This document shows, one piece after another, positions 42,984-58,701 of a stretch of DNA of 64,000 nt (position 1 is its first letter; each line of letters starts with the position of its first letter). Location of the stretch: contig JAEEZX010000018.1 of NCBI GenBank assembly GCA_016292045.1, forward strand, positions 22,249 to 86,248. The letters run 5' to 3'. The notes below the pieces were generated by a model. The model had not been told where the DNA came from. It made no database searches and worked only from the letters and a program-made list of their open reading frames with translations. The translations under genes and the position numbers were made by a program. This stretch comes from Bacteroidaceae bacterium. GTDB lineage: Bacteria > Bacteroidota > Bacteroidia > Bacteroidales > Bacteroidaceae.

Positions 42984-43014
42984 GTTAAGAGTGAGGAGTG
43001 AAAAGTGAAGAGTT
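42984..43014. repeat. 7-bp-period tract (GTgAgGA-like)
   Basis: GTTAAGA GTGAGGA GTGAAAA GTGAAGA GTTTTTT. Confidence 0.6.
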
Positions 43015-43077
43015 TTTTTGGTTTTCTGGACACAAAATATTCGTGTCGCGAATGTCGCAAATGTCGCAACAGCAAGA

Positions 43078-43100
43078 AAGCCGCTGATTTCCAGCGGCTT
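43078..43100. terminator. Hairpin, possible terminator
   Basis: AAGCCGCTG-ATTTC-CAGCGGCTT perfect 9-bp stem, no strong T-tract directly after. Confidence 0.4.
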
Positions 43101-43180
43101 CCCTTCTTACATCTTACTTCTTATATCTTCCCTCAGCCTTCAGACATCAGACTTCCCCTCTCATTTATCATTTATCATTT
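43101..43180. repeat. Composite 7-bp-period tract
   Basis: ATCTTAC TTCTTAT ATCTTCC CTCAGCC TTCAGAC ATCAGAC TTCCCCT CTCATTT ATCATTT ATCATTT. Confidence 0.65.
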
Positions 43181-43272
43181 AGGCGTAGCCGAAAGTAGGT
43201 TTTCTTGTTTTTTTCTGTGAGATATTTCTGTGATTTCTGATGTCACAGGTGTTACGAATTATAAAAGATTAA

Positions 43273-44022
43273 TTACAACCCTCTTTTATCTGTCTTCCGA
43301 TTTTTTAACTCATCCATATAGCCCGCTGTTACTATTCCTGATGGTAGCGCAATAATAGCGATGCCAACCATAGAGGATATTATACTAATAGTTCGGCCTA
43401 AATCAGAAATCGGATATATATCTCCATAACCGACAGTAGTAAGTGTGGATGCGGCCCAATAAAATGCATCAAAAAAATTTCTAAAAAGATATTGTCCTGT
43501 TCTTGGGTCAATTTCTTCTTCCGCATTAAACATAATTAATGCAGTAATGAATACATAAAAAACAGCTAATGAAAGAACTGTACACAATATCTTCTTTTGC
43601 TTACGGATGACGGACAAAATAATACCTAACGGTTCAAAGTATCTAATAAATTTTATAACTCGTAGAACTTTTAATAGGCGCGAAAAACGCATGACCTTGA
43701 AAGTCGGACTGAGAAGATTTAAAGTAGGAAGGATTGTCAACAAGTCTATCACAGCCATTGGCGTAAAAGGATAATAAAGGTATGCGACAAAACCTTTCTT
43801 ATTAGAATTGAGGTCTGCTGTAATCCATCTAAAAATATAGTCTATAATGAAACATGAGCCGGAAAACAAATCAAAATACCAAAATAATCGATATTGTTCT
43901 CGGAACATCAATGGTATAATACCTATCACAATAGCGAGAAGCATCAACCAATCATATAAACGAGATATCAAACTCTCATTTTTATGGTCTATAAGTTTCT
44001 TTATATATTTACGAGTTCCCAT
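43273..44022 (-). CDS. Voltage-gated-like potassium channel / ion transporter
   Basis: 'AFYWAASTLTTVGYGDIYPISDLGRTISIISSMVGIAIIALPSGIVTAGY' pore; S4-like 'RFSRLLKVLRVIKFIR'. Start at MGTRKYIKK (44022). Confidence 0.9.
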   Translation of the reverse strand: MGTRKYIKKLIDHKNESLISRLYDWLMLLAIVIGIIPLMFREQYRLFWYFDLFSGSCFIIDYIFRWITADLNSNKKGFVAYLYYPFTPMAVIDLLTILPTLNLLSPTFKVMRFSRLLKVLRVIKFIRYFEPLGIILSVIRKQKKILCTVLSLAVFYVFITALIMFNAEEEIDPRTGQYLFRNFFDAFYWAASTLTTVGYGDIYPISDLGRTISIISSMVGIAIIALPSGIVTAGYMDELKNRKTDKRGL

Positions 44023-44142
44023 ACTATTTTTTGTGTGCAAAATTACAAAAAAGAGATTATATTCAAGCAATCTAGTTAAAGAAAAACACAAAACAAAGAA
44101 CAGAATGTTTTAATTCTACGATTTAATGATTATCTTTGTAGT

Positions 44143-44997
44143 ATGAAAAATTACAGACTATCCATAATCGTTTCGTTATTGCTCGCAATAGTAATAGGCT
44201 TTAACGTCAATGGTTCTACCTCCAAATATGTTAAAGGTGCACCTATTTCTTCATTTGCAACGCCAGAAAGTAAGGACGTAAATGCCCAACAAACATTTAC
44301 TCCTTTGATAGCTTCCATAGATTTGCCTTTACCTCTAAAAGATGTATCAGAACAACTATTATATAGGAAAGCGTATATTGTTTCATACAATAAGGACAAC
44401 AGAATTCCGAACTGGGTAGCATGGCATCTTACAAGTGAACATACTTATGGTGATGTAAAACGTCTTGGCAACGCATGGCACGAAGATACAGACGTTCCTA
44501 CTCCGAGGGCTTCTCTTGCAGATTATAAAGGAAGCGGATGGACACGCGGCCATATGTGTCCTGCTGGTGATAACAAATGGAATAATGATGCCATGTATGA
44601 ATCGTTTTTGTTTACTAACTGTTGTCCTCAGAATGCTAATTTGAATAGTGGCACATGGAACCAGATAGAAACGTCATGTCGTCGATGGGCTGAAAAATAT
44701 GGTGATTTGTATATCGTTTGCGGTCCAATACTTTTCCGACAAGAACATGAAATGATTGGAGAAAATAAAGTGATTGTTCCCGAGGCTTTCTTCAAAGTTA
44801 TCGTGTGTTTAAAAAAAGGAAAAGAACAGGGTATCGGTTTTATTTGTAGGAATAATGACGGCAATCGAAATAAAGACTTATATATTAACACGATCAAACA
44901 AGTTGAACGAATTACAGGTATAACCTTCTTTCCTCACCTACCTGAACGTATAGCAGATAAAGTTAAAAATAAAGCAGATATTAACGATTGGGAGTAA
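44143..44997 (+). CDS. Secreted DNA/RNA non-specific endonuclease
   Basis: Signal peptide; 'GSGWTRGHMCPAGDNKWNNDAMYESFLFTNCCPQNANLNSGTWNQIE' NUC1-type active site (RGH). TATCTTTG promoter upstream. Confidence 0.9.
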   Translation: MKNYRLSIIVSLLLAIVIGFNVNGSTSKYVKGAPISSFATPESKDVNAQQTFTPLIASIDLPLPLKDVSEQLLYRKAYIVSYNKDNRIPNWVAWHLTSEHTYGDVKRLGNAWHEDTDVPTPRASLADYKGSGWTRGHMCPAGDNKWNNDAMYESFLFTNCCPQNANLNSGTWNQIETSCRRWAEKYGDLYIVCGPILFRQEHEMIGENKVIVPEAFFKVIVCLKKGKEQGIGFICRNNDGNRNKDLYINTIKQVERITGITFFPHLPERIADKVKNKADINDWE

Positions 44998-45020
44998 TCT
45001 TTGTTTAGTAAAAATATTTG

Positions 45021-46991
45021 TTACAAAATTATTTCTAGCCCCTTTTGACGAAGAGTATTAATGTAGTCATCTAAATTGCGGCTATATACAGAGGTGGGGT
45101 CTGTTGCATCTTTGATAAACTTCAAGAACCTACTAATTAAGGAAAGATATTCGTTGTACCAAGATTGGTCCTCTTTATAGTCATACAAAATATCTGCGAT
45201 AAATAGAATATGTGGAGGTACAGGAACTGTTTCTGTAGGCTTTAGCATGTTACAACAATTTCTATATACAGACTCATATCTGCTTAGCTGTACGAAAGGG
45301 ACTTCTTTTCCTGTATATATTTTAAAAATAACGAGAGCAAAGGGATAGCAATATGGATGCAAATCACCCACGACTTTATAAACATTTTTTATAATCCTAT
45401 AGAAATCCATCAATGAACAGAAGAAAAGCTTTCCTCTGTATGTACTTGTATCTCCATCTCCAGACATCTTTTCAGATAAATTTACCTGAACACCATTGAG
45501 ATTATCATGCCGATTTACGCCCGGATCTACTGACAACAAATCCATGAAAGCATAAAAGTCATTCATATATTGACGCGCCCTTTCATATAACGCTACCGGA
45601 TCTACATTAAAAGCCTTAAAACTTGAATTTTCGAACTGCAGATTAGTTTTTTGGGGCTTCGTCGTATCTTCTATGTCATCAACTTCATTAAGAACATTGC
45701 GATATCTTTTATCTACAATAACTGTCAATGAATTAGTGGCTTTTGCTTCCTTTATGGCCTGTTTTAAGTCTTCAGAATTACTAATTATTTTACTAATTTT
45801 TTCTGCATCACCTATAGGCAAAAGAATTAAATTTGGATTTGATGCTAAGAGTGCAGAAGTTTTTATTACATCATCTATTCTCTTTCGAAAATCAGATTCT
45901 GGAATTATCTCTATGGTTGATTTCTTGTAATCAATCACATTTGGATGACTAAAAAAATCCTGTAATGGATAGAGCGAAGAGAATGATATTGCAGAAAAAG
46001 ACTTCCGATCAAACTCAACCCAATAATAAGCAGAAAAACCAGTCACCACAGACAAACGCACTAAAGACACATTTACCGATAAATTAAACAAGTGTCCTGC
46101 AAGATAGTATGATATGCCTAAAAGGGTGTTAACAGTATCTGTGTCAAGTTCCTTCTTGAGTTTATCTTTAATACTTATCTTTCCTGAAGATAATGGCACG
46201 GCTTTCTTGTCTGGAACATATATCATAGAAGGCAGAGAGGCTATTGCATTAATTATGCCACCTTCTTTGTTATAATCAACATCTAAGGTTATGTCAAATG
46301 GAATTTGGGAGTCAAGTTTTACGTTGAGTGCAGATATTTGTTGCTTAACATAGGTATCGTCACCATACAATTCATCCTCAAGTGCCTTTTTACTCTCGTT
46401 ATATTCTCTTAGAAAACTCTCATTTGTCTGGGCTTCAACACATGACTGTATAGTTTCATGATACAGCTTTAATTCCTCCCAATTTGACATTCGCTCATTA
46501 AACTCTTCTTCTAATGTATCTGATACAAAAGAACTTTTCTTGGATGAATTGCGGCTCCAAAGAGAGAAAAATTTAAAATTTGCTTCTTGTTGTAAATCAT
46601 ATGCAACTTCACCTTTGCGAGGAATTGGAAGAGTAAAGGGTTCTCTTTTATATTGCTTAATTGCTAATTTATTTAGCTGATTTTCAACAGAAGTTCGACT
46701 TTTGGGACTAAGCGTTTTTTTTGACAAATATATATAGGCATTATTCCACCCCACTATGGCTTGCAACATCTCTTTTGAAACTTTGACAATTGCATCCTTA
46801 TACAAAGGACTTCGTTTGGCTGCACCATCATGAAGCGAGTACGCAGAACCATCTATAGTCAGATTGTACTCACCATCTTTAGCTAACATCACTTCGGCTC
46901 TGTGCGAGCCATAAGAACGTGTATTAAACGAAAAGGATTGGCGAATAACCATCGGAACCCCAAAAATACCTTTTTTTATTATTATCTTCAT
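45021..46991 (-). CDS. Hypothetical protein (656 aa)
   Basis: Long single ORF with plausible composition; own -7-like TAGCTTTG upstream near 47005. No family recognised. Confidence 0.7.
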   Translation of the reverse strand: MKIIIKKGIFGVPMVIRQSFSFNTRSYGSHRAEVMLAKDGEYNLTIDGSAYSLHDGAAKRSPLYKDAIVKVSKEMLQAIVGWNNAYIYLSKKTLSPKSRTSVENQLNKLAIKQYKREPFTLPIPRKGEVAYDLQQEANFKFFSLWSRNSSKKSSFVSDTLEEEFNERMSNWEELKLYHETIQSCVEAQTNESFLREYNESKKALEDELYGDDTYVKQQISALNVKLDSQIPFDITLDVDYNKEGGIINAIASLPSMIYVPDKKAVPLSSGKISIKDKLKKELDTDTVNTLLGISYYLAGHLFNLSVNVSLVRLSVVTGFSAYYWVEFDRKSFSAISFSSLYPLQDFFSHPNVIDYKKSTIEIIPESDFRKRIDDVIKTSALLASNPNLILLPIGDAEKISKIISNSEDLKQAIKEAKATNSLTVIVDKRYRNVLNEVDDIEDTTKPQKTNLQFENSSFKAFNVDPVALYERARQYMNDFYAFMDLLSVDPGVNRHDNLNGVQVNLSEKMSGDGDTSTYRGKLFFCSLMDFYRIIKNVYKVVGDLHPYCYPFALVIFKIYTGKEVPFVQLSRYESVYRNCCNMLKPTETVPVPPHILFIADILYDYKEDQSWYNEYLSLISRFLKFIKDATDPTSVYSRNLDDYINTLRQKGLEIIL

Positions 46992-47142
46992 AGTACAGTC
47001 TATTGTTAAGCAAAGCTACAATTATAAATAAATAATGAAAATAATCGCATTAGATTTCAGAGGAAAATGAGAAATAAAATACCAGATTTCATTGCACGCT
47101 TTATATTTTAATAGGGAGACCTGGAGATTTCATTATTTATAT

Positions 47143-48252
47143 TTATACGGTTACTAAGTTAATAATATTTAGCACAAATGAACAGTCAAATCCCTGGAAG
47201 ACAAGACGTTTAACATTATTCCCATCTCGTTGAACCTCCATTCCGTCAGAATATGGATTAATACCGATTATCTTGCTGTAAGGAACCTTGATGCTCCGAG
47301 TTTGTCCCATGAAAATAATATTCTTATTAGTTACATATAGACTCCCCTGCCCCATATTCTCCATATAACTTGTTTCTACAGGATGTCCTTTGAATCCACC
47401 CGTACGATATCTAACACCTTTCATAATCCTAAAAGAAAAACCGCCATAACTACCTACCATCTCCTTTTTTATCTTTTCTTGGTACATAGTAACATTATTG
47501 TAGCACCAAAGCGCATCCTCGCCTTTGGTAAGAATAATAGGTGCATTAATAACATATCGTGGGTGACGACCTGCTTGAATATCGCCGAGTATATATGACT
47601 GACCAAGTTCTTCTATTTGGGTTCCCTGCAACGAAGCAGGAAGGTTGATAAGTGAAAGTCCAAGCGTGGATACATATTCTTCAACTTTTTGTTGTTCGGC
47701 AGAAGTCATATAACCATCTTTGAGGAAATTCTTCCCTGCTTGTCCCAACATTTCATAATATACATCTTGTTCTTGCTGGTGAGAAATAGGAAGTGTGTTT
47801 ATCACCTGCTGCGAAATCTGTATAGAGCGTTGTAATGTTTTCTGATTTGTGAAATATTCTGCCATAAAACCACGTATCATTTTCTGGCATAGTCTATCAA
47901 GTGCGCCAGATGAGTTAACAGTCTGATACGATACCCCTATGTTATTTAGAAAATCTTTTACTAAGGCCAATAGAGATGAGTGAAATGGCCAATGAATGGT
48001 GTTAGTCCATTCGTCTATACATTTCCCTGATGAATTACCTATATCTTCATTGGATATAAAATTGTTTTGGGAAACGTTAGCAACAACTTTTCTCAACTCT
48101 CCAATCTGGATAGCATTCATAAAATAAGAGCGCAACGCCCCTTCTAACAATGTTATACCCTGTTTATACTTCTCTTCACATTCCTTATGAGAATGAGAGA
48201 ATAGTCCTGCGCTCTTACCACAATATTTGCATGTTCCCATTGGCGTAAACAA
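47143..48252 (-). CDS. Zinc-finger-like N-terminus plus PH-like domain protein
   Basis: 'CKYCGKSAGLFSHSHKECEEKY' and C-terminal 'GSLYVTNKNIIFMGQTRSIKVPYSKIIGINPYSDGMEVQRDGNNVKRLVFQG' PH/bPH-like. Confidence 0.6.
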   Translation of the reverse strand: MFTPMGTCKYCGKSAGLFSHSHKECEEKYKQGITLLEGALRSYFMNAIQIGELRKVVANVSQNNFISNEDIGNSSGKCIDEWTNTIHWPFHSSLLALVKDFLNNIGVSYQTVNSSGALDRLCQKMIRGFMAEYFTNQKTLQRSIQISQQVINTLPISHQQEQDVYYEMLGQAGKNFLKDGYMTSAEQQKVEEYVSTLGLSLINLPASLQGTQIEELGQSYILGDIQAGRHPRYVINAPIILTKGEDALWCYNNVTMYQEKIKKEMVGSYGGFSFRIMKGVRYRTGGFKGHPVETSYMENMGQGSLYVTNKNIIFMGQTRSIKVPYSKIIGINPYSDGMEVQRDGNNVKRLVFQGFDCSFVLNIINLVTV

Positions 48253-48253
48253 C

Positions 48254-50059
48254 TTAAACCAATTTTACTGAAATTGTTCTGTTCTCTGTTTGATATTGCC
48301 GTTGTGGATATTTAATCACTTCGGTATATATTTCATAGATTGCATTTAGAGCGAACTTACATCCTTCTTTGGTGTAATTTTTTTGTTTGACAGTTTCTAT
48401 GATTTTCGAAAAATCATCCACTTGATATGTTGAGATTATCAAATCAACCACTTTTTGTAATTCCCAATATGCTTTTTCGTATTCTTCCAGTTCTAACAAA
48501 GCGTCAAAACTATTAAGAGCATGGAGCATATATTCTTTAGATGACGGATTAATCTCCTTTTTATCAATAAAGAGTGAGAAATTATAGCATAAAGAAGCTA
48601 TTCCTGCTTTTCTCTTCTGCGGAATGACGTTCTGGGGCTCTTTAACTTTATTGAATGTTCTTACTTTGTCAAGGAAGGTAAATATAGATTCATCCGAAAT
48701 TATATCGCTATAGGTTACAGGTTTGGTTAAATAAAGACCTTGAAGAGATTTTGCACGACTTAATGCCACATATAATTGTCCTGGAGCAAAGATATGACTA
48801 TTTAAATCTAAAATGACTTTATCGTAAGTTTGCCCTTGAGCTTTGTGAATAGTAAAAGCATAAGCTAACTTTAAAGGGAATTGCTTGGTTTTCTGTATGA
48901 AGGGTGACTTTTTCACTAATCTATGCTTTGTTTGATCATATTCCATCTCATAACGATATTCGTTCATTTGATTGAACTTATATCTATCATTAGGATTAGG
49001 GCATTTTACAATTGAATTGTCATCCAACCTAATTGTAAAATAATCACCATTAAAGTCCTCAATTGTCCCGAAATCACCATTTATATATCCCCAATACCTA
49101 CTACTTTTGCATAAAACGACCCTTGCGCCTCGTTTAAAGCGTAACTGCGAGTCATATTCAGATGGTACAATTATTTCGCAAATATCTTCATTAGAAGGCA
49201 AATCACTATGCATTAACACGACATTACCAGTACCGTCCTTTTTTTGTATTGTGTATTCAGCATCTATTGTTGTTATCTGCCCAGGAAGTCCCGACAACTT
49301 CTGGGTATTTACTTGTCGAACTTCCTCATTGGATGATGCTACATATACAGCATCATTGGGCAAAACGTCTGTTACTCGGCTGTTTATCGCATCCATTATT
49401 GATACCTTTTCTTCCGGGGTTAAAGGCTTTCTAAATGCATCCAGTATTTTAACGAAAGAAGGGTCATTTGATTGGCGGTAGGATTTATTCAATTCGAATA
49501 ATTTAATATTGGGAATCTCCTTCTGTACAATATGGCTATTAAAGAAATAAATACCGCCATATTCTTTTTGAAGATACTCCATAACAGCATCATCACTAAC
49601 TATAGGTGGAAGTTGAAACATATCACCTACTGCAACAAATGGAATACCACCAAAAGGTTTACAATTATTTAATGCTTTTTGACAAATCTGATTCATCATC
49701 TCACAAAGGTCTGCACGAACCATAGAAATCTCATCAACAATAAGCATTTTAATTCCTCTTAGGCTCATACCAAATGGGAGAAGATTAGTACTATTCAAAT
49801 TACCAGGATTTTGGTATCCTTCGTCTAAGTCATCCAATGCGCCATGGAAAAAAGAGTGAATTGTTCTAGCTCCCAGATAAAGAGAAGCTGCAAGGTTGGT
49901 TGGTGTCAGCACTTGGCAACCACGAATCTCAGATATTAGTTTCTTGATGAGATGTGTTTTTCCGCTTCCTGCCTTACCATGAATAAAGGTTATACCAGAT
50001 GGAATGGTTCTCAAATACATGAGAACATCGTCTTGAGTCGTATTTGGCATGTTTTGCAT
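48254..50059 (-). CDS. Pif1/RecD-like SF1 helicase
   Basis: 'GITFIHGKAGSGKTHLIKKLISEIRGCQVLTPTNLAASLYLGARTIHSFF' Walker A; 'MLIVDEISMVRADLCEMMNQI'; 'FAYAFTIHKAQGQTYDKVILDL...QLYVALSRAKSLQGLYL'. Confidence 0.88.
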   Translation of the reverse strand: MQNMPNTTQDDVLMYLRTIPSGITFIHGKAGSGKTHLIKKLISEIRGCQVLTPTNLAASLYLGARTIHSFFHGALDDLDEGYQNPGNLNSTNLLPFGMSLRGIKMLIVDEISMVRADLCEMMNQICQKALNNCKPFGGIPFVAVGDMFQLPPIVSDDAVMEYLQKEYGGIYFFNSHIVQKEIPNIKLFELNKSYRQSNDPSFVKILDAFRKPLTPEEKVSIMDAINSRVTDVLPNDAVYVASSNEEVRQVNTQKLSGLPGQITTIDAEYTIQKKDGTGNVVLMHSDLPSNEDICEIIVPSEYDSQLRFKRGARVVLCKSSRYWGYINGDFGTIEDFNGDYFTIRLDDNSIVKCPNPNDRYKFNQMNEYRYEMEYDQTKHRLVKKSPFIQKTKQFPLKLAYAFTIHKAQGQTYDKVILDLNSHIFAPGQLYVALSRAKSLQGLYLTKPVTYSDIISDESIFTFLDKVRTFNKVKEPQNVIPQKRKAGIASLCYNFSLFIDKKEINPSSKEYMLHALNSFDALLELEEYEKAYWELQKVVDLIISTYQVDDFSKIIETVKQKNYTKEGCKFALNAIYEIYTEVIKYPQRQYQTENRTISVKLV

Positions 50060-50061
50060 AT

Positions 50062-50937
50062 TTATATCGCTTTTAGTCCTTGATAATTTCGCATTGAAGT
50101 ACCAAATAAGCCACAACATTCAAACCTGACAGAACAATCATTGCAGATGTCAAGATATCGGGTCTTCCAATCAGAAATACTCCGTGTCGCAAACCTGTGA
50201 TATTCAGTAGGTAGCAAACAAAGAGGAATATTGTATATAGCGACTGGTATATCCCAGTCGTCAAGTTCTTTAACTGCCCTACATAATTGACTGGCGTAAT
50301 CAATTGGCTCCACCCAAATAGTCTCGGCATTTTTTGATGCCCAGCCAGTATCTTCCATGCCCATAAAGGCAACCCATGAAACGAAATATAAGTTTTTGAA
50401 AATGTATTTTGCCAACTGAGGTAGCCGATAGTAATTAAGTTTGTTTATAACAATTCTCAACTCAATAAGAATACCCTCGTTAGCAAGGTTGTATATTCCA
50501 AGCATTGTTTCGTTAAAAGCGCCTTTTGCCCCAGAGATAATGTCATGGTCACGGAAGAAATCTGAATGTAAGGGAACACCTATAAAAACCTTATCCTCAC
50601 CTGCAACTTTTAGTTTATGGACAAATTCATTATCACTAAACGCACGACCATTGCTAAGCACGTGAATGTCTGTAAGTGGCAATTCTTTTCTAACCAGAGA
50701 GACGAGTTCTATAAAGCTATCTCCTGCAAGAGTTGGTTCGCCACCCGTAATACACACAACCTTTGTTTCCTTTGGAGCGGACTTAATGAGTTTAATATTC
50801 TGATTGAAACAAAAATTGAAATCATCGTCTTTTTGTGGAGGTTGGCAACACATTATACAATGATTGTTACATTGGCTTGTAACAAACAAAACGTTACTAT
50901 TGGAATCTATTTCAAATCTCTCTTTCATTTCACCCAA
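50062..50937 (-). CDS. hxsC: His-Xaa-Ser system radical SAM maturase HxsC
   Basis: 'NVLFVTSQCNNHCIMCCQPPQ' radical SAM CxxxCxxC with PP; 'CITGGEPTL'; C-terminal Cys cluster 'CNDCSVRFECCG'; neighbourhood. Confidence 0.82.
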   Translation of the reverse strand: MGEMKERFEIDSNSNVLFVTSQCNNHCIMCCQPPQKDDDFNFCFNQNIKLIKSAPKETKVVCITGGEPTLAGDSFIELVSLVRKELPLTDIHVLSNGRAFSDNEFVHKLKVAGEDKVFIGVPLHSDFFRDHDIISGAKGAFNETMLGIYNLANEGILIELRIVINKLNYYRLPQLAKYIFKNLYFVSWVAFMGMEDTGWASKNAETIWVEPIDYASQLCRAVKELDDWDIPVAIYNIPLCLLPTEYHRFATRSISDWKTRYLDICNDCSVRFECCGLFGTSMRNYQGLKAI

Positions 50938-52325
50938 CGTCTAAAAATTGGTAACACTTCATCACCTCGTTCAACAATTAAAGAAAAGAGATACTCAATA
51001 ATTGCCTTGTTTTTTTCACATACCAGCGACGTCGGTCTGAAACCATACATATCACCTTGAGTTGAATGATGACGCACAGGGTCGGCCCCACAATATACTT
51101 TTATTGGACATGAAGAACATCCAGCTAAAGCCTCATTAGCCCAAATCTTCCCCATCCTCTTTGCTACAGAACCGCAGAACACATCTTCATACTTGTCTGT
51201 CACCTTGCCCAAACGGAAAGAATAGTCATGTATTTCTGCTAACATTCTTGATTCATCTGAAGCATATACATAACCGTCGTAGTTGTAAACTATCACCGAA
51301 TTAATTGTCCCAGCAGGAGATTGTAGATCTACAAAACCCGTAGTATATGGCGTAAGCATCTTCCTTAATATTATTGAAGCATATTCTTCACGAAAAAAGA
51401 TACCATGCTTATTTATTTCTATTATATAGTCAACAGCCGTCTTGTAAAAACTGATAAATCTCTGGTTATATCTCTTCCAATCTTCATTTTGGGCAGCAAG
51501 TCCATAAGGGTTTAGGGCTCGTAAAAATATTCCATTAAAGCCATCACTTACATACTCATCAACAATTTCTTTTGGGTAATCAAGAGCCAATTCTGACGTT
51601 GTCATCAATGCAGAAACAAATTCGTTACCCAAAACAGCACGAGCCTTGTTTATTCCTGCGATAGTTTTTTCGTAACTATCTTCTCTTCCACGATTTTTAT
51701 TATGTATGTATGAAGGTCCGTCAAGTGATGTTGAAATCAGTATATTATATTGTTTGCATAGTTCCAACATATCATCAGAAAGTTTTCTGCAATTTGTGCA
51801 CAGAACATAAGTCAGCTTGCGATTCTTCTCTTTATTTATTTCTTCTGCTGTTTCTATTCCATGTCTAATCAAGTCTATTTCCAAACTTGGTTCACCACCT
51901 TGAAATTCCATCGTTAGATTAGGAGATGGAGAATGAAACATCATCTGAACTGAAGCTGTCATATCTTCTAAAGACATGGAACAATGTTTGCTCGTTTCCT
52001 CTTGACTTGAAGCCTGACAATAAATACAGTTTTGGTTGCATCGAAGGGTAAGAACAAAAATGTGTAGTGATGTTTTATCATCAAGAAATCCTTTCTTTGT
52101 TCTTAATCTTGAAGCATAAATATCAAGTAAAGATGGTAATATCTCTTCTGTAACAAAAAAATTAGATACTAACGTCTTATATAAATCCTCGTCGGATATA
52201 GAATGACTTAGTATTTTCTGCACAGTACCAATTGGGGTAATTATAAAATCCCCCAACTCGTTTATCAGAATTTCGTGGTTTAAAATTGTGATAAAATTGA
52301 ATGGTAACAATGCATATTTTCTCAT
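50925..52325 (-). CDS. hxsB: His-Xaa-Ser system radical SAM/SPASM maturase HxsB
   Basis: N-terminus 'YALLPFNF...LINELGDF'; 'LTLRCNQNCIYCQASSQ' radical SAM; 'EFQGGEPSL'; SPASM-like 'CSSCPIKVYCGADP...C'. Confidence 0.85.
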   Translation of the reverse strand: MRKYALLPFNFITILNHEILINELGDFIITPIGTVQKILSHSISDEDLYKTLVSNFFVTEEILPSLLDIYASRLRTKKGFLDDKTSLHIFVLTLRCNQNCIYCQASSQEETSKHCSMSLEDMTASVQMMFHSPSPNLTMEFQGGEPSLEIDLIRHGIETAEEINKEKNRKLTYVLCTNCRKLSDDMLELCKQYNILISTSLDGPSYIHNKNRGREDSYEKTIAGINKARAVLGNEFVSALMTTSELALDYPKEIVDEYVSDGFNGIFLRALNPYGLAAQNEDWKRYNQRFISFYKTAVDYIIEINKHGIFFREEYASIILRKMLTPYTTGFVDLQSPAGTINSVIVYNYDGYVYASDESRMLAEIHDYSFRLGKVTDKYEDVFCGSVAKRMGKIWANEALAGCSSCPIKVYCGADPVRHHSTQGDMYGFRPTSLVCEKNKAIIEYLFSLIVERGDEVLPIFRRWVK

Positions 52326-52612
52326 TCTAAAATTTCCTCTTCAGTCAATTCGTCAAATTCACCAAACGCTTTTGCGTACAATATGGTTTTTATGTACTTT
52401 GTTTCTTCATCGATTTGATTACGCAATTTGTAATCGTTTAGTTTCTGATAGAATTCTAAAAGGAACTGTTTTTCGTCTTGCACTCCATCGATAGTCAATG
52501 TTTCTATAGTGCCTTGTATGGAACGTTGTATAGCATATCGAGAAGAAAACCAATATACTACTGTAGAAATACAACTATCTGAAAATATTTTTCTATCGAT
52601 CTTAAGCGTCAT
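52322..52612 (-). CDS. hxsD: His-Xaa-Ser system protein HxsD
   Basis: Small protein with 'FYQKLNDYKLRNQI', matching the LLNDYxLRE motif of HxsD; located between hxsA and hxsB. Confidence 0.82.
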   Translation of the reverse strand: MTLKIDRKIFSDSCISTVVYWFSSRYAIQRSIQGTIETLTIDGVQDEKQFLLEFYQKLNDYKLRNQIDEETKYIKTILYAKAFGEFDELTEEEILE

Positions 52613-53475
52613 TTCTTAAAATTCTTAAGCTTTGTTATGGTTGGAGTATCAGGAATACCCGTCACATCTAATTTATTGTATGCTTGGAACATCTTTAGTG
52701 CCATTGCAAGCTCATCATTAAATACGGCGTTGCCTGACTTATATTCCAGTTTAGAGGATTCTGGGGCATATCCGGCCGTAGTCAGTAATGTTATGAGCGT
52801 AGACACATCATATCCAGCGGTTCCTTTAGATATATCCCGAAAGCCTAATTCGATTGTTGTTTTGTTCACATCCCATGTCTGAAGCGCAACTGATGTAGTG
52901 TTATCAACAATTCCTGTTACCTTCAGCCCCGCATCCTGCTGGAAATGCTTAATTGCGGCAGAAATATTGGTGTCGCAAATAGCATAACCGGATTTCTTTG
53001 TTATAGAATTCCTTTTAAGATAATAGTTGGAAACAAGTAAGTCCACCAGTTTATCTACATCTGCTCCATAAATTCCAGCCTTAATAACACGATCGCCAAA
53101 AGAGTAAGTTGCAACCGTTTTTGTTGGCTTAGAATAAGAACTAGAAGAGCTACTAGAAGAGCTTCCAGACGAGCTACTTGAATAATGAGAGTAATGAGAA
53201 GAATGTGAACTTGAATAATGAGAAGAATGAGAAGAATGTGACCGATGACTACTATGCGATCGGTGAGCACTAACCATAGACATACGTCCCGTTGGAACTA
53301 TCTTTACCACATTCTTATATATACGGTGCTTGATTTCCTTTATTTGGTCAGTATCATCATCTTCTGGTTCAAAACTCGGAAGAAATGGGTCCTGCGCTTT
53401 GGCTTCCGTATGTATAAGTGACATAACGGAACTAAAGAGTATGGATTTAAAAATTTTCTTTGTTATCTTGCTCAT
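52609..53475 (-). CDS. hxsA: His-Xaa-Ser repeat protein HxsA (exported, two peptidoglycan-binding-like domains)
   Basis: Signal peptide MSKITKKIFKSILFSSVMSLIHTEAKA; 'AHRSHSSHRSHSSHSSHYSSSHSSHYSHYSSSSSG'; two PG_binding_1-like units ending 'AIKHFQQDAGLKVTGIVDNTT' and 'ALKMFQAYNKLDVTGIPDTPT'. Confidence 0.9.
   Translation of the reverse strand: MSKITKKIFKSILFSSVMSLIHTEAKAQDPFLPSFEPEDDDTDQIKEIKHRIYKNVVKIVPTGRMSMVSAHRSHSSHRSHSSHSSHYSSSHSSHYSHYSSSSSGSSSSSSSSSYSKPTKTVATYSFGDRVIKAGIYGADVDKLVDLLVSNYYLKRNSITKKSGYAICDTNISAAIKHFQQDAGLKVTGIVDNTTSVALQTWDVNKTTIELGFRDISKGTAGYDVSTLITLLTTAGYAPESSKLEYKSGNAVFNDELAMALKMFQAYNKLDVTGIPDTPTITKLKNFKK
53134..53265 (-). repeat. His-Xaa-Ser / poly-Ser coding repeat of HxsA
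   Basis: Codes HRS HSS HRS HSS HSS HYS SS HSS HYS HYS followed by Ser-rich segment. Confidence 0.9.
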
Positions 53476-54656
53476 AGTTCCTTGTTTTTAATAAAGTTCA
53501 ACCAATAATCGTCTGGAGATAGTTTCATAAGTTCATCCAATAGTTTCTTGCCAGCCTCATTCAATTTACCTTTATTCGCTGAAACATTTAGGATTAAGGT
53601 GTTCCTACCATTATTCACCCTATTAATGATGTCCTGTTCTACGCCATCTAACTTTTCTTGAAGACTAGCCCGGACAGAAGAAGGTATGTCAAGTTGTATA
53701 AGGCTGTTTAGAGCTTCTTTTGCCTGCAAAAGGTAAGAGTTGTCGGACTTACCTTTTTCTATTAACTTATCTGTAACCTTTTCCATCTTTTGGAAGGCAT
53801 TTTCTTTATATGAAGAACGATTAAACGCATCATAGTTTGTGTAGGCTTCTAAATAAGATGCAAATGCCTGATCGTACAAACCTGATGACACATAAGAATC
53901 ACCTTTCTGAACGGTTTGGTTAAACGTCTCTATCTTTCCTAAAGATAAGACATAAGAAATTCCATTTAATCCACCAAAGAGTATGATCGTGACAATGAGT
54001 GCAACCGTTATATAGACTTTTACTCTCAAAGAGGATGTGTCTTTGTGATGTGCCTGTAAAACTTTTTCTCTCTCTTGGATGCACCAATCTGAATCACTAG
54101 TTTTTAGCGCTTCACTCAGAATTTTTATTTTACCTTCTACAAAGGAGAGTTTTGTTAAGGCCGATGCTGGGTAATATGCTGATGTCTTAGCAGGAATAAC
54201 CAATAATGTATCTAATAATCTGCGATACTCCGTCTTCTGCGCATTTAATTCCCCTTTTAAATCAGAGATGATGTTTGTCTTATTTATGTGTTTCGCGGAA
54301 TAATCATCATTTTTATTTCCAAGAGTATATTCTGGAATGATATCGGATAAACCAAGACCATATACAATTGATGACAACAAATATGCTACAATTTCTTTTT
54401 GAAATCCAAAGTTCTGACAAATTTCTGCTGTAAATACATTTATTTTTAAGTTCCAGTCTTCTTTTACACCCAGTAATTTCTCACCATATCCGGCTTTAAG
54501 TATTGTCCGAAGAACTTGTTTTGCTGCAGGAATATCGTCGAAGGAAGCAACATCATCAAGAATGTTAGATAATCTAATGTTCTTGACGACATCACTACCG
54601 TATTGCAGAATTACCCCTTTAATGGATTCTGGCAGTATCTTATTTTGCTTCGCCAT
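53472..54656 (-). CDS. Hypothetical membrane protein with one TM segment and helical repeat-like C-terminus
   Basis: Hydrophobic 'VKVYITVALIVTIILFGGLNGISYVLSL' followed by TPR-like 'GDSYVSSGLYDQAFASYLEAYTNYDAF'; 4-bp overlap with hxsA. Confidence 0.7.
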   Translation of the reverse strand: MAKQNKILPESIKGVILQYGSDVVKNIRLSNILDDVASFDDIPAAKQVLRTILKAGYGEKLLGVKEDWNLKINVFTAEICQNFGFQKEIVAYLLSSIVYGLGLSDIIPEYTLGNKNDDYSAKHINKTNIISDLKGELNAQKTEYRRLLDTLLVIPAKTSAYYPASALTKLSFVEGKIKILSEALKTSDSDWCIQEREKVLQAHHKDTSSLRVKVYITVALIVTIILFGGLNGISYVLSLGKIETFNQTVQKGDSYVSSGLYDQAFASYLEAYTNYDAFNRSSYKENAFQKMEKVTDKLIEKGKSDNSYLLQAKEALNSLIQLDIPSSVRASLQEKLDGVEQDIINRVNNGRNTLILNVSANKGKLNEAGKKLLDELMKLSPDDYWLNFIKNKEL

Positions 54657-55809
54657 TTTTATGTAATTCTTTAGAAAGACTAAGCGACAATTGTTGCATT
54701 AAAGCCTCATGCTTAAATAAAAGTTTGTTGCGTTCCTCATTTGCACGTTCAATATCTTGACGTGCATAAGCTGCTTCTATCTTGTCCTTTTCATTATCTG
54801 TTCCTGCATCTTCGAGATAATCGAGCTTTTGGGTAAGTTGTTTTATTCGTTTGTCTGTTGTTTGAACCTTATCTGTTACTAGTTTTATCTGGTATTGGAT
54901 AAACTCTACTATATGAGTTTGCAGAGCATTCAAGTTGTATATGAAAGCAACGGACATATCATCTTTACTTCCGATTGCACTTAGCTGGGGAAGTTCTTTC
55001 TCAATAGACTTGACAGTTTCCTCGCGTCCATCATTAACAAGCATCTTTATAACTTGAATATAGAAGTTTACTAGATTCTCTATCTCACCAAAAGAATCAT
55101 CTATACCATCAGACCCTAAAAAAACTGCCATTGGGAAATGACCGTCACCCTGATAACAGTACCGAAACTCATTAATTGCCCCAGAATCACAAATAGATGT
55201 CGTTTTATTTAGGAAACAACGATCGTCCCAGGGAATAGGCTCCATCCACAAGGGGTCCTCTTGAAAGGATATACATTTACCATCACCCAAATGAAACGCA
55301 AACCAATAATCAGATGTTTGCGCATAAGCCATTAGTGTACAACCATATATTTTCTCGAAGGTTTCGCTAGTAGAGAGTTCATTAATATATTTGGGATCAA
55401 CATGTTGTTGTTCCCACTCGCTAATAGTTGTGTTAGCTGCGTGCTCTGCGATTTTCTGATTCCATTGATAGATAATCGATGAGAAAAGTTGGCGGAATGC
55501 TACATCTATAGGTGTTTGTTTTTTGACAACTTCTTCTGAGGTTATAGCTTCCTGCGCCGTAAATGGCTTACTTATAAATAAATTCTTATCGATATTTTCA
55601 ACGAAAGTCCTGACAGTATCAAGAATTACTTCTGTTGCCATGCGAGAACCTACATCACTACGAAAATAGCGTTCGCCCCCATGGCCGTCACACACGACAG
55701 CAATAGCAAGTCCATTTTCATAGACGGCATGGAAGGAGGCATCCTGACAAGGCTTATTATCAGCCTTATGGCTTTCTCCCTGACATGAGAAGGAATAGCT
55801 TTCTATCAT
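54640..55809 (-). CDS. PP2C-family protein phosphatase
   Basis: 'SCQGESHKADNKPCQDASFHAVYENGLAIAVVCDGHGGERYFRSDVGSRMA', 'LGDGKCISF', 'LGSDGIDDSF', 'SKDDMSVAFIYN'. Confidence 0.88.
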   Translation of the reverse strand: MIESYSFSCQGESHKADNKPCQDASFHAVYENGLAIAVVCDGHGGERYFRSDVGSRMATEVILDTVRTFVENIDKNLFISKPFTAQEAITSEEVVKKQTPIDVAFRQLFSSIIYQWNQKIAEHAANTTISEWEQQHVDPKYINELSTSETFEKIYGCTLMAYAQTSDYWFAFHLGDGKCISFQEDPLWMEPIPWDDRCFLNKTTSICDSGAINEFRYCYQGDGHFPMAVFLGSDGIDDSFGEIENLVNFYIQVIKMLVNDGREETVKSIEKELPQLSAIGSKDDMSVAFIYNLNALQTHIVEFIQYQIKLVTDKVQTTDKRIKQLTQKLDYLEDAGTDNEKDKIEAAYARQDIERANEERNKLLFKHEALMQQLSLSLSKELHKNGEAK

Positions 55810-56562
55810 TTATCCCCAATCATCAATATATTGGCTACTGTCAATAGTGGAAGTTGAATCAGATGTTTCTGCACCATCAATATTTTGAGTTGCATCTTGA
55901 ATGTCCTTAACAACCTGTTCCTGTTTTGTTATTTCTCCTGCTGTACTACTCTTACTTCCAATTTGAGATGATGTAACCGCAACAACTCTAATGATTTGTT
56001 TAAGTGCGTCAATATTATGAACAGTAATAACAGCTTCCGAGGAACCCGTAAATTCTTTCAAGACATCTTTATCTGCATCGTCACCAATTGCAATCGCAAT
56101 TTTTATGGCCGACTTGAACCAATTATTAGCTTTTAATTTTGCTAAACCACTATTGTAGTCATCGGTTGGTCCACCATCAGAAAGCAGAATTATAGCTGGT
56201 GCAAAAGAGCCACTGGCAGACTGCATGAATCCACCAGAACGCGACAACTTAGAAGCTAATTCTGAACAAGCAGCTCCTAATGATGTCAGCCCACTTGCAA
56301 CAACATCCTGCCAAATGAAGTCTTTCGCTAATTTTGGCTCATCGTATAGCCAATTAACTCCATTAGAAAATTCTAAAGCAGCTACTTTAATCTCTGCATC
56401 AGGATTGGTCTCAGAAATGTCATTAAGCATTGGTAACACATTAACAACGGCATCATTTACTGCACCAATCTTGTTTCCTTCCATACTTCCAGAAGTATCA
56501 ATCAGGAAGAAAAGTGTCATCGTCCTACGAGGAACACTTACGGTTTCGTCTAAAAGTCCCAT
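55810..56562 (-). CDS. von Willebrand factor A domain protein (TerY-like)
   Basis: 'TLFFLIDTSGSMEGNKIGAVNDAV' MIDAS; 'IILLSDGGPTDDYNSGLAKLKANNWFKSAIKIAIAIGDDAD'. Confidence 0.88.
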   Translation of the reverse strand: MGLLDETVSVPRRTMTLFFLIDTSGSMEGNKIGAVNDAVVNVLPMLNDISETNPDAEIKVAALEFSNGVNWLYDEPKLAKDFIWQDVVASGLTSLGAACSELASKLSRSGGFMQSASGSFAPAIILLSDGGPTDDYNSGLAKLKANNWFKSAIKIAIAIGDDADKDVLKEFTGSSEAVITVHNIDALKQIIRVVAVTSSQIGSKSSTAGEITKQEQVVKDIQDATQNIDGAETSDSTSTIDSSQYIDDWG

Positions 56563-56585
56563 ACTATTTTTATTTGTTTTTGATA

Positions 56586-57893
56586 TTATGCAATTACTTC
56601 ACCCTTTGTTCCCGCTGCCTCTTTGATACTTGAGCCAAAAGAAATCTTCAAACCATTCAAAATTGGTAAGAATTCATTTGGATTTACGACTTTTACCTTT
56701 CCGCTTGGAGTATCTATATGCCAACAGGATTGAGTAAGATTTCTTATTACAAGCAGATTTTTGTCCGATGGAAAGAAATCTACTTCTGCATCTGGAGTGT
56801 TATCATGATTTATATATAGTTTTGTTCCTGCTGTTAATATTAAACTTCTATTGTTTAATTTCAGTTGTTTTGTAACGTCGATATCATCACCACAGTTAAT
56901 ACATTTAAATTTATTATCCTCTATATCAACAAATGTTTCTTCATGACAATGGGGACAAACGACTAACTCATCGCGCACTTTTGAAATAATTCTCTCCCAC
57001 TCTTGTTCAATCATACGAGTGTTTGGGTGCCATAGCTTCTCTTCACTAAATTGGTCAATAAAAGTTTTTTTAAGTGTTGACGGGAATAAGGGCCATCTCT
57101 TTATTACATTTTGATGTACACCTCTCACCGGTAGGTTAGACTTGTCTGATGGACTATAAATAAAAATAGCCTCGCTGCCATAAAAGCGCTTCTCAAATGT
57201 CTCTGTCATACAAGGACAAGCAACAACCTTAGCCCCTTCAAAAGGGTGGTTGGCAAAGAAAAGCATAAACAATATGACAGAAAGTGAGAATCTATCACTA
57301 TATTTATCTGGAATACCACCAGCAACAATCTCGGGAGCCATATAACGAGCCTTACCCATAATGCCAGATTTTTCACCCTGTGGCATCACATTATCATTGT
57401 CACAAATTAGCACATCGCCATCTGTAGGACGAATAAAGAAGTTACCATCATTCAAATCTTGGTAACTATACCCAAAACGGTGGAGCATCATAAAGCCATT
57501 ACAAATTTTCATTGCCGCTGCAAGCATTGCATTAAATGACTTAAAATTCTTCCGAGCGAGTAAGTAGTTACCAAACTCAAAGTAGTCAGAGGGACGCAAC
57601 TTCATGATATAGCCAAAACTACCATTTTCTTTCTGGGTCAAATATTCTGGCCAAATAAATGCATCAGAAGGTGCACCCTGTCGAATATTACGTTCAAGAT
57701 TCTTATAAAATTTTTCGTCTGGAGGTGTTATATACCATTTCAATGCCATTCGTTGGCCATCCAAATCAACAAGATAAACAATACCCTGTCCCCCTCGTCC
57801 TAATTCTTTTATAACCGTAGCCTGATTTCCAAACGTCAGATTTACTCGTGCCCCTTTCTTTAGTTCCATACTCATAACTGTATTAATAACCAC
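56586..57893 (-). CDS. Ser/Thr protein kinase-like protein with C-terminal zinc ribbon
   Basis: 'ELGRGGQGIVYLVDLDGQRMALKWY', catalytic-loop-like 'YSYQDLNDGNFFI', 'GKARYMAPEIVAGGIPDKYSDRFSLSVILFMLFF', zinc ribbon 'CPHCHEETFVDIEDNKFKCINCGDDI'. Confidence 0.87.
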   Translation of the reverse strand: MVINTVMSMELKKGARVNLTFGNQATVIKELGRGGQGIVYLVDLDGQRMALKWYITPPDEKFYKNLERNIRQGAPSDAFIWPEYLTQKENGSFGYIMKLRPSDYFEFGNYLLARKNFKSFNAMLAAAMKICNGFMMLHRFGYSYQDLNDGNFFIRPTDGDVLICDNDNVMPQGEKSGIMGKARYMAPEIVAGGIPDKYSDRFSLSVILFMLFFANHPFEGAKVVACPCMTETFEKRFYGSEAIFIYSPSDKSNLPVRGVHQNVIKRWPLFPSTLKKTFIDQFSEEKLWHPNTRMIEQEWERIISKVRDELVVCPHCHEETFVDIEDNKFKCINCGDDIDVTKQLKLNNRSLILTAGTKLYINHDNTPDAEVDFFPSDKNLLVIRNLTQSCWHIDTPSGKVKVVNPNEFLPILNGLKISFGSSIKEAAGTKGEVIA

Positions 57894-58254
57894 CTCCTCT
57901 TAGATCAAAAGAATCTGCGGCTTCCAATGTTCCAGACTTATGGCAGTTGGGGCAAGTCACCCGTTCTTGACCATGCCAGCAAACTACAGAGTTACAGTTA
58001 CCGCAAATATAAAAACGCTTTTCTCCACAATAAGGACAACCTGGGAAATGTTGAGCTAAAGATATAGTACCATGTACCTTTTTACTATCAAAACCTTCCC
58101 TGTGTGCCTTTGCCTTATCAATTTTAAATGCCCACACGAATTTTAGGTTGCCCTTATAAGGATCAACCGTTATGCCAAAAGGTCGTCGTGTTTCTTCACA
58201 TTGTGCCAATATAGCAAATGCTTCTTCACTTATTTTTTCAATTTCCATAACCAT
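57883..58254 (-). CDS. Zinc-ribbon protein (TerY-C-like)
   Basis: 'GCPYCGEKRFYICGNCNSVVCWHGQERVTCPNCHKSGTLEAADSFDLRGGGY'. Confidence 0.75.
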   Translation of the reverse strand: MVMEIEKISEEAFAILAQCEETRRPFGITVDPYKGNLKFVWAFKIDKAKAHREGFDSKKVHGTISLAQHFPGCPYCGEKRFYICGNCNSVVCWHGQERVTCPNCHKSGTLEAADSFDLRGGGY

Positions 58255-58693
58255 AGCAAATCGAGAATAAATGTTGACGTTTTCATTTCTCTCGTTATTT
58301 ATGTGTTTTTTAGCCTAGATTTAAGCGTTTCCGCAACAAATATACATTTTTTTTTTGAAACACACAAAAAAACTCATGCGTGCGGGCGCAAAATTCTATA
58401 AAAAAGATGTTTTGTGATGCGATTTGGCGAAGTTGTTATTTGTTTATATGGAAAAGCACTTATCTTTGCAAACAAAAATGCTACCCTACGTTACATCCAA
58501 CAGCCTAAGCCACTTCTTTCATGAGAATGTGTAAGATAGACTGAAAAGAATTTGTAAATTAGACACACAGAAAACAAAACAAGATGCAAGATAATATACA
58601 AAACAGCATAAACAAACAACACAGAAACATAAAAAAAGACGTAAACAAAAGACGAAAATAATTCACGATTTTCTTTGCCAGTTGGAGAAAAAA

Positions 58694-58701
58694 CCGTACA
58701 T
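58694..58701 (+). promoter_or_regulatory. -7-like box TACATTTG upstream of 134-aa gene (approximate position)
   Basis: 'ccgTACATTTGcgcc' matches TAnnTTTG. Confidence 0.45.

What the first reader, a model, noticed from the sequence alone, without database searches (positions are those of the whole stretch)
47143..58254. His-Xaa-Ser (HxsADBC) peptide-modification system in one operon with a TerY-P-like kinase/vWA/PP2C set and a Pif1-like helicase
Seen: eleven same-strand genes with overlapping or abutting junctions (57893/57883, 56562/56586, 55809/55810, 54656/54640, 53475/53472, 52612/52609, 52325/52322, 50937/50925). The order is zinc ribbon, Ser/Thr kinase with zinc ribbon, vWA, PP2C, TM/repeat protein, HxsA, HxsD, HxsB, HxsC, Pif1-like helicase, PH-like protein. 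Established: HxsA-D is a family-defined but functionally uncharacterised system in which two radical SAM enzymes are predicted to modify HxS repeats; TerY-P triads (vWA + PP2C + kinase, with TerY-C zinc ribbons) are predicted stress/defence signalling modules. Inference: cytoplasmic phospho-signalling and a modified exported repeat protein form one system, possibly an envelope-stress or anti-phage response with the helicase as an intracellular sensor or effector. I cannot confirm whether this exact combination has been described.
Basis: partly seen in the sequence, partly recalled or inferred. Interest (0 to 1): 0.93.

Follow-up and report, generated by a model that had tools for sequence, protein, structure and literature searches.

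The report
Kinase triad wired to HxsADBC operon
In a group of gut and rumen bacteria, enzymes that chemically modify a histidine/serine-repeat protein of the cell envelope are inherited as one mobile unit with an internal protein-kinase/phosphatase switch and a membrane protein that could join the two, a combination for which I found no earlier description and which probably senses envelope attack or stress.

Summary
The genes are there as described, and the combination is real. HxsB, HxsC and HxsD pass NCBI's cut-offs; kinase, vWA and PP2C are intact; nearly all junctions overlap or abut. Kinase-vWA-PP2C-TM protein-HxsADBC recurs contiguously in eight other Bacteroidales loci (two more are cut by contig ends), and all these HxsB proteins that could be placed fall in one fully supported clade. 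Elsewhere Hxs occurs without the triad, and the triad without Hxs.

Two corrections. The unit is larger: a sharply AT-rich island (about 43.0-58.7 kb, 33-40% GC; flanks 44-59%) also holds a 656-aa protein, a probably secreted DNA/RNA endonuclease and an ion channel, whose relatives recur next to Hxs. The Pif1-like helicase sits in a variable slot and is not conserved.

Key new link: the TM protein between PP2C and HxsA has an unnamed ~110-aa helical domain, a TM helix and a TPR-like domain. The helical domain is missing in two related loci without the triad, and elsewhere is fused to a helicase-nuclease beside the same triad.

Best reading: a transmembrane phospho-signalling system reading an exported, peptidoglycan-bound, radical-SAM-modified protein, probably for defence or envelope stress. 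The function is untested.

The parts
58337..58368 (-). Bacteroidetes-type promoter match TTTG-N20-TATATTTG, about 80 nt before the first gene
   Evidence: consensus match only (0.6 expected per 64 kb, 3 found)
57883..58254 (-). ZnR: 123-aa TerY_C-type zinc ribbon protein
   Evidence: Pfam TerY_C 39.6 bits over cut-off 28.4; homologues at the triad in L022, L025, L027, L032, L033, G609
56586..57893 (-). Kin: Ser/Thr-type protein kinase with C-terminal zinc ribbon (likely start at an in-frame ATG 6-8 codons in)
   Evidence: Pkinase; GRGGQG, ALK, QDLNDGN and DND motifs and the Cys pairs kept in the aligned homologues
55810..56562 (-). vWA: TerY-like von Willebrand A protein with intact MIDAS motif (DTSGS, SDG)
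   Evidence: VWA 39.2 bits; 73-90% identical in other triad loci; motifs
54640..55809 (-). PP2C phosphatase (CDGHGG, SDGIDD, DDMS present)
   Evidence: PP2C_2 92.1 bits; motifs
53472..54656 (-). TMp: proposed bridge. Residues 5-116 unnamed helical adaptor domain (AD); 126-202 helical; 208-237 TM helix; 239-393 TPR-like domain ending in conserved PDDYWLNFIKxK
   Evidence: model mean pLDDT 88.6, pTM 0.45
52609..53475 (-). HxsA-type protein: signal-peptide-like N-terminus, nine H-x-S triplets (residues 71-99), two PG_binding_1 stretches
   Evidence: below the curated HxsA cut-offs
52322..52612 (-). HxsD
   Evidence: TIGR03976 73.1 bits over 50
50925..52325 (-). HxsB radical SAM maturase (CxxxCxxC plus C-terminal cysteines)
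   Evidence: TIGR03978 563.7 bits over 370
50062..50937 (-). HxsC radical SAM maturase
   Evidence: TIGR03977 342.8 bits over 267.9
48254..50119 (-). Pif1/Dda-like SF1 helicase; variable cargo slot, not conserved (likely start ATG near 50059)
   Evidence: PIF1 71.2 bits; phrog_325 Dda-like 232.5 bits; not at this place in other loci
47143..48252 (-). PHl: N-terminal zinc finger, helical bundle, C-terminal PH-superfold domain
   Evidence: model and Foldseek matches to pICln/Dcp1/Ran-binding PH folds, E about 2e-3; present in most triad loci and in G632
45021..46991 (-). 656-aa protein of unknown fold; homologues near Hxs in triad loci
   Evidence: no Pfam match; phrog_38135 80.7 bits
44143..44997 (+). 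Endonuclease_NS nuclease with N-terminal hydrophobic segment (probably exported)
   Evidence: PF01223 187.2 bits; 9 of 33 Bacteroidales Hxs loci against 0.2 expected
43273..44091 (-). Ion_trans-type ion channel (likely start at the ATG near 44022)
   Evidence: PF00520 94.6 bits; 9 of 33 Bacteroidales Hxs loci against 0.12 expected
43000..58700 (.). AT-rich island (33-40% GC; left flank 52-59%, right flank 44-55%) that bounds the unit

Best explanation
A laterally acquired, clade-specific signalling unit of Bacteroidales that spans the cell envelope. Proposed working: HxsB and HxsC (with HxsD) modify the His-x-Ser repeats of HxsA in the cytoplasm; HxsA is exported and held at the peptidoglycan by its two PG-binding domains. 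TMp sits in the inner membrane with its TPR-like end in the periplasm, next to HxsA, and its N-terminal adaptor domain in the cytoplasm. A change at HxsA (damage, a bound phage or other insult, or a redox/metal change) is passed by TMp to the kinase/PP2C/vWA switch, whose state is then read by PHl and by effectors: the ion channel, the exported nuclease, and a variable cargo slot (here a Pif1/Dda-like helicase; elsewhere adaptor-domain FtsK, TPR and other proteins). Shown: gene set, conservation, shared adaptor domain, island limits. Inferred: membrane topology, direction of signalling, the modification itself, defence or stress as the purpose.
For: Contiguous kinase-vWA-PP2C-TMp-HxsA-HxsD-HxsB in nine loci including the window (L022, L025, L027, L029, L032, L033, G609, G829=L130), plus L026 (contig starts in PP2C) and G801 (contigs broken between PP2C and TMp). 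HxsB tree: all rows labelled triad (11) lie in one 17-row clade with 100/100 support and none of the 53 rows outside it is. TMp carries the adaptor domain in all eleven such loci and lacks it in L023 and L040, which keep TMp-HxsADBC but no triad (Fisher about 0.013, my arithmetic). In G632 the triad has no Hxs and the adaptor domain is fused to a 2302-aa DUF4011/SF1 helicase/REase protein directly beyond PP2C. In 394 Bacteroidales genomes the adaptor domain is strong in six, four of them beside the triad (p about 1e-5 without the window). Kinase and vWA distances follow HxsB distances across nine loci (Mantel r 0.45 and 0.50, p 0.011 and 0.005). Ion channel and nuclease enriched near Bacteroidales Hxs (9 loci each against 0.12 and 0.19 expected). 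HxsA has PG-binding domains; a second HxsA in L029 has a TonB_C end.
Against: No expression, topology or phenotype data. TMp-HxsA, TMp-HxsB and TMp-kinase distances do not correlate significantly, so direct contact of TMp with HxsA rests on gene order and domain logic. The triad is absent from five HxsB clade members (L023, L024, L030, L031, L040) and L043 is undecided, so Hxs works without it. Adaptor domains also occur away from the triad (G756, G818, weakly G570). No PADLOC model matches vWA, PP2C, TMp, HxsA, PHl or the 656-aa protein, and no other known defence system was found in the island. Signal peptide and orientation were judged by eye and by hydropathy only.
Confidence: 0.5

Rival explanations
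1. Output model: the triad is the upstream switch and HxsA is the effector. Phosphorylation of TMp by the kinase triggers maturation, display or assembly of the modified HxsA on the peptidoglycan, for example as a protective or lethal surface structure.
For: Same gene set and conservation; in G632 the place of TMp-HxsADBC is taken by an adaptor-domain helicase-nuclease, i.e. an effector-like protein. In effector-associated-domain systems the adaptor is fused to effectors (PMC7159879).
Against: No catalytic or toxic domain in HxsA; Hxs cassettes stand alone in most genomes and on plasmids and a phage, so HxsA must act without the triad.
Confidence: 0.25
2. Metal or redox homeostasis: the His-rich HxS region binds metal in the periplasm and the zinc-ribbon/vWA triad is a metal-sensing switch, as proposed for TerY-P; not a defence system.
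For: H-x-S repeats are possible metal ligands; zinc ribbons in ZnR, kinase and PHl. CoCoNuT authors cite TerY-P as a hypothesised metal-sensing phosphorylation switch (PMC11090510).
Against: No metal transporter, TerD or TerC-type gene recognised in the island; the recurring partners are nuclease, channel and helicase or helicase-nuclease.
Confidence: 0.12
3. Loose co-selection: two separate mobile modules that share an island and a promoter, without a functional link.
For: Both halves occur alone; seven label changes on the HxsB tree.
Against: Fixed order in divergent loci (HxsB 60-76% identical to the window), 4-nt overlaps at TMp/HxsA in the window, one clade, and TMp losing its adaptor domain exactly where the triad is missing.
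Confidence: 0.1
4. HxsA is the precursor of a released bacteriocin-like peptide and the triad controls its production or immunity.
For: Radical-SAM-modified repeats resemble precursor peptides of RiPP systems (PMC9062424).
Against: Repeats sit in a 288-aa protein with two PG-binding domains, a second HxsA has a TonB_C end; no peptidase, exporter or immunity gene recognised.
Confidence: 0.03

Closest known systems
HxsABCD (His-Xaa-Ser) system, NCBIfam TIGR03976-TIGR03979
   Same: HxsB, HxsC and HxsD over cut-off, order A-D-B-C, H-x-S repeat protein next to them.
   Different: HxsA here is longer, with two PG-binding domains, below the curated HxsA models; and the cassette is preceded by TMp and a kinase/vWA/PP2C triad, which ordinary Hxs loci (Adhaeribacter, Hymenobacter, Leptospira) lack.
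TerY-P triad (vWA + PP2C + zinc-ribbon kinase), as described with CoCoNuT systems (PMC11090510) and in Helicobacter pylori (PMC4978471)
   Same: Three genes, kinase with C-terminal zinc ribbon, TerY_C protein; one homologous locus (G632) has the triad beside a DUF4011/SF1 helicase/REase protein.
   Different: Linked here to radical SAM peptide maturases, an exported PG-binding protein and a TM adaptor; no CnuB/CnuC, McrB or HEPN CoCoNuT gene recognised.
Effector-associated domains (EADs) of Kaur et al. 2020 (PMC7159879)
   Same: Small helical domain repeated on several proteins of one locus and fused to different effectors.
   Different: Centre is a kinase/vWA/PP2C triad, not a MoxR/VMAP or GTPase system; the domain matches no Pfam family, so identity with one of the published EADs is not shown. 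The paper does mention kinase-zinc ribbon/PP2C/vWA genes with actinobacterial GAP1-N2 systems.
Radical SAM genes with vWA-MoxR FtsH ternary systems (PMC7159879)
   Same: A radical SAM enzyme predicted to modify a peptide effector next to a vWA signalling protein.
   Different: AAA+/FtsH-centred and not described as HxsB/HxsC; no kinase-phosphatase pair named there.

Membership tests
HxsABCD system | HxsB radical SAM maturase | tested here: met
   TIGR03978 563.7 of 370 bits
HxsABCD system | HxsC radical SAM maturase | tested here: met
   TIGR03977 342.8 of 267.9 bits
HxsABCD system | HxsD | tested here: met
   TIGR03976 73.1 of 50 bits
HxsABCD system | HxsA by curated model | tested here: not met
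   TIGR03979 28.4 of 121.65; NF038296 31.8 of 48; NF038313 21.9 of 55; filed as HxsA-like on repeats and position
HxsABCD system | Repeated H-x-S motif in the adjacent protein | tested here: met
   nine H-x-S triplets, residues 71-99; core invariant in 16 sequences
HxsABCD system | Radical SAM modification of the repeats | not testable with these tools
   needs mass spectrometry; Fe-S cysteine motifs are intact
TerY-P triad | TerY-like vWA protein with MIDAS | tested here: met
   VWA 39.2 bits; DTSGS and SDG motifs
TerY-P triad | PP2C phosphatase | tested here: met
   PP2C_2 92.1 bits; motifs
TerY-P triad | Ser/Thr kinase fused to zinc ribbon | tested here: met
   Pkinase 52.1 bits, CPHC...CINCG pairs
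TerY-P triad | TerY_C zinc-ribbon protein (optional) | tested here: met
   PF15616 39.6 of 28.4 bits
TerY-P antiphage system of Gao et al. 2020 | Match to PADLOC profiles; kinase with OB-fold | tested here: not met
   no PADLOC match for vWA or PP2C, kinase only to PD-T4-6/MADS-type kinases; zinc ribbon instead of the OB-fold named in PMC11090510. Whether PADLOC holds TerY-P models was not checked
Type II/III-A CoCoNuT | McrB/McrC-type CnuB/CnuC and CnuH/CnuE genes | tested here: not met
   none among Pfam matches of the island proteins
EAD-type adaptor system | Same small domain on several proteins of one locus, fused to effectors | tested here: met
   20 ORFs, up to five in one locus (L026), fused to FtsK and TPR proteins
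EAD-type adaptor system | Identity with a published EAD | tested here: inconclusive
   no Pfam match; no solved homologue beyond designed helical repeats; published EAD sequences not compared

The most novel reading that the evidence does not exclude
A so far unnamed class of envelope-spanning bacterial immune or stress system in which a radical-SAM-modified, peptidoglycan-bound repeat protein is the outside sensor, a single-pass adaptor protein carries the signal, and a TerY-P kinase/phosphatase switch drives exchangeable effectors through a shared adaptor domain. It would give the Hxs modification its first biological role.
Probability: 0.35. Interest if true: 0.88.

Novelty: new variant of a known kind. 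Interest (0 to 1): 0.72.

Why it matters
HxsABCD has been a defined protein family system without a known role, and TerY-P triads have mostly been seen with intracellular restriction-like genes. A conserved operon that ties both through one membrane protein gives each a testable partner: what the Hxs modification is for, and how a TerY-P switch could receive a signal from outside the cytoplasm. The shared adaptor domain also gives a handle for finding further effectors in Bacteroidales.

Tried and rejected
Pif1-like helicase as a core sensor or effector: rejected, it is in no other triad locus at that place and shows no convincing adaptor domain (best domain E 0.17). Chance neighbourhood: rejected by the recurring order. 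Triad only with Hxs: rejected (G632, G779, G642). Adaptor domain only with the triad: rejected (G756, G818, weak G570). Relation of TMp to HxsA by profile comparison: none. PDB fold matches of TMp: only weak TPR-type matches, E 0.1 or worse. Viral-contig scan with HxsB: only two remote radical SAM hits. Flanking GH95 gene as a marker of an empty site in relatives: only distant paralogues, so no empty site was shown. The 2012 TerY-P paper (PMC4104200) is not held, so prior description of this combination there could not be excluded. Own simplification to note: L028 is labelled triad in the tree because its genome has a triad-Hxs contig (L130), but L028 itself is a second, truncated Hxs copy.

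Full report
Observation. The eleven genes are present as described, with HxsB, HxsC and HxsD over NCBI's curated cut-offs and VWA, PP2C, protein kinase, TerY_C, PG_binding_1 and PIF1 over Pfam's. HxsA is recognised by position, nine H-x-S triplets and two PG-binding stretches, but stays below the curated HxsA models. Most junctions overlap or abut. A single Bacteroidetes-type promoter match lies before the first gene on its strand.

Limits. Base composition changes sharply at about 43 kb (58% to 35% GC) and at about 58.7 kb (37% to 55%). The AT-rich stretch also contains a 656-aa protein (45021-46991), an Endonuclease_NS nuclease (44143-44997, other strand) and an Ion_trans channel (43273-44091). 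The closely similar loci G609 and L032 have HxsC-PHl-656-aa homologue-channel in that order, with a nuclease just beyond the first gene on the other strand. I therefore take the unit as about 43273-58254. HxsB over the family cut-off occurs in only 2 of 61 relatives and 15 of 394 Bacteroidales genomes, and the other same-genus carrier (G031) has Hxs without the triad: the island looks laterally acquired.

Conservation. A scan of 85,462 species genomes with an HxsB alignment gave 80 loci. tblastn and HMM mapping, with whole-genome searches, give kinase-vWA-PP2C-TMp-HxsA-HxsD-HxsB contiguously in nine loci including the window; L026 begins inside PP2C and G801 is split between PP2C and TMp. All are Bacteroidales. 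In the HxsB tree they fall in one clade of 17 with full support; none of 53 rows outside carries the triad. Seven label changes are needed, so gain followed by several losses, or repeated exchange, both fit. L031, an isolate (Prevotella lacticifex), has a CHAT-TPR protein in the locus instead.

Separate occurrence. Hxs stands alone on Adhaeribacter, Hymenobacter and Leptospira plasmids and in a Leptospira phage. The triad stands without Hxs in G632, G779 and, more distantly, G642. Co-occurrence in 393 genomes other than the window: 2 of 5 kinase genomes have HxsB, expected under 0.2 (hypergeometric p 0.011), and where contigs allow the two lie within 5 kb.

The bridge. TMp has an N-terminal domain of about 110 residues shared by 20 ORFs in the loci fetched. 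All are in triad loci or in L043, whose contig is cut at HxsB. L026 has five copies, L022 three, fused to FtsK and TPR proteins. In L023 and L040, which have TMp-HxsADBC but no triad, TMp lacks the domain and keeps the TM and C-terminal part. In G632 the domain opens a 2302-aa protein with DUF4011, AAA_11, AAA_12, REase_MTES_1575 and DUF3320 beside the triad. AlphaFold2 gives a confident helical model (mean pLDDT 88.6; pTM only 0.45, so relative domain placement is unsure): adaptor 8-101, helical 126-202, TM 208-237, TPR-like 239-393. PDB comparison shows only TPR-type matches. This pattern is what one expects if the adaptor belongs to the triad and the other end to HxsA; it is inference, not proof.

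Effectors. Channel and nuclease each occur in 9 of 33 Bacteroidales Hxs loci, with 0.12 and 0.19 expected from their frequency in 37 relatives. They also occur in Hxs loci without the triad, so they go with Bacteroidales Hxs in general. PHl goes with the triad, including G632 without Hxs; its C-terminal half has a PH superfold. The slot between HxsC and PHl is variable; the window has the Pif1/Dda-like helicase there.

Mechanism. I commit to an input model: modified, peptidoglycan-bound HxsA as sensor, TMp as transducer, triad as switch, channel, nuclease and variable cargo as effectors (about 0.5). The output model with HxsA as the effector is the strongest rival (0.25). Metal homeostasis, loose co-selection and a released peptide are less likely. 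Defence against phage is plausible from the partners and from published links of TerY-P to restriction-type systems (PMC11090510), but nothing here tests it.

Known or new. HxsADBC membership is met for B, C and D and not by model for A. TerY-P triad membership is met by domain content. No paper in the held library describes the combination, but the library lacks the founding TerY-P paper and most subscription journals. I rate it a new variant, built by joining two known kinds through an undescribed adaptor protein.

Noticed in passing
L045, L049, L050, L067, L068, L084, L056 downstream of HxsC; also L026, L027, L028: GDSL/SGNH hydrolase with WD40-like repeats, MBOAT O-acyltransferase and carbamoyltransferase genes recur directly after HxsC in other Bacteroidota (8-10 loci): perhaps O-acylation or carbamoylation linked to Hxs.
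   Followed up: partly
L113:7060-13968 (G632): Adaptor domain fused to a giant DUF4011/SF1 helicase/REase_MTES_1575/DUF3320 protein next to the triad, without Hxs.
   Followed up: partly
L129:9321-10838 (G756) and L128:11508-12812 (G818): Adaptor domain on a protein with metallo-beta-lactamase-like HxHxDH and HHG motifs (read by eye) and on a multi-TM protein, away from any triad.
   Followed up: no
L029:8957-9706: Second HxsA-type protein whose H-x-S region is followed by a TonB_C domain instead of PG-binding domains.
   Followed up: partly
L031:6309-9695: Prevotella lacticifex has a CHAT-TPR protein between its HxsA-like gene and HxsD, in the clade where relatives have the triad; a CHAT-TPR protein also lies near the triad in G642.
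   Followed up: no
L130 and L028 (same genome, G829): Two different Hxs copies in one genome, one with the triad.
   Followed up: no
plasmids collection, H23 onward: HxsB-like genes (about 31% identical) on 316 Klebsiella plasmid records, 270 of 340 hit plasmids typed conjugative.
   Followed up: no
L017 (KF114877.1): A Leptospira phage genome carries a whole HxsADBC cassette.
   Followed up: no
window 45021-46991: The 656-aa protein has no Pfam match but hits a phage protein family of unknown function (phrog_38135, 80.7 bits).
   Followed up: partly
window 14470-14564: tRNA-Asp call of 95 bases, unusually long for tRNA-Asp.
   Followed up: no
window 62972-63877: CHC2 zinc-finger DNA primase-like protein right of the island, resembling phage or mobile-element primases.
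   Followed up: no
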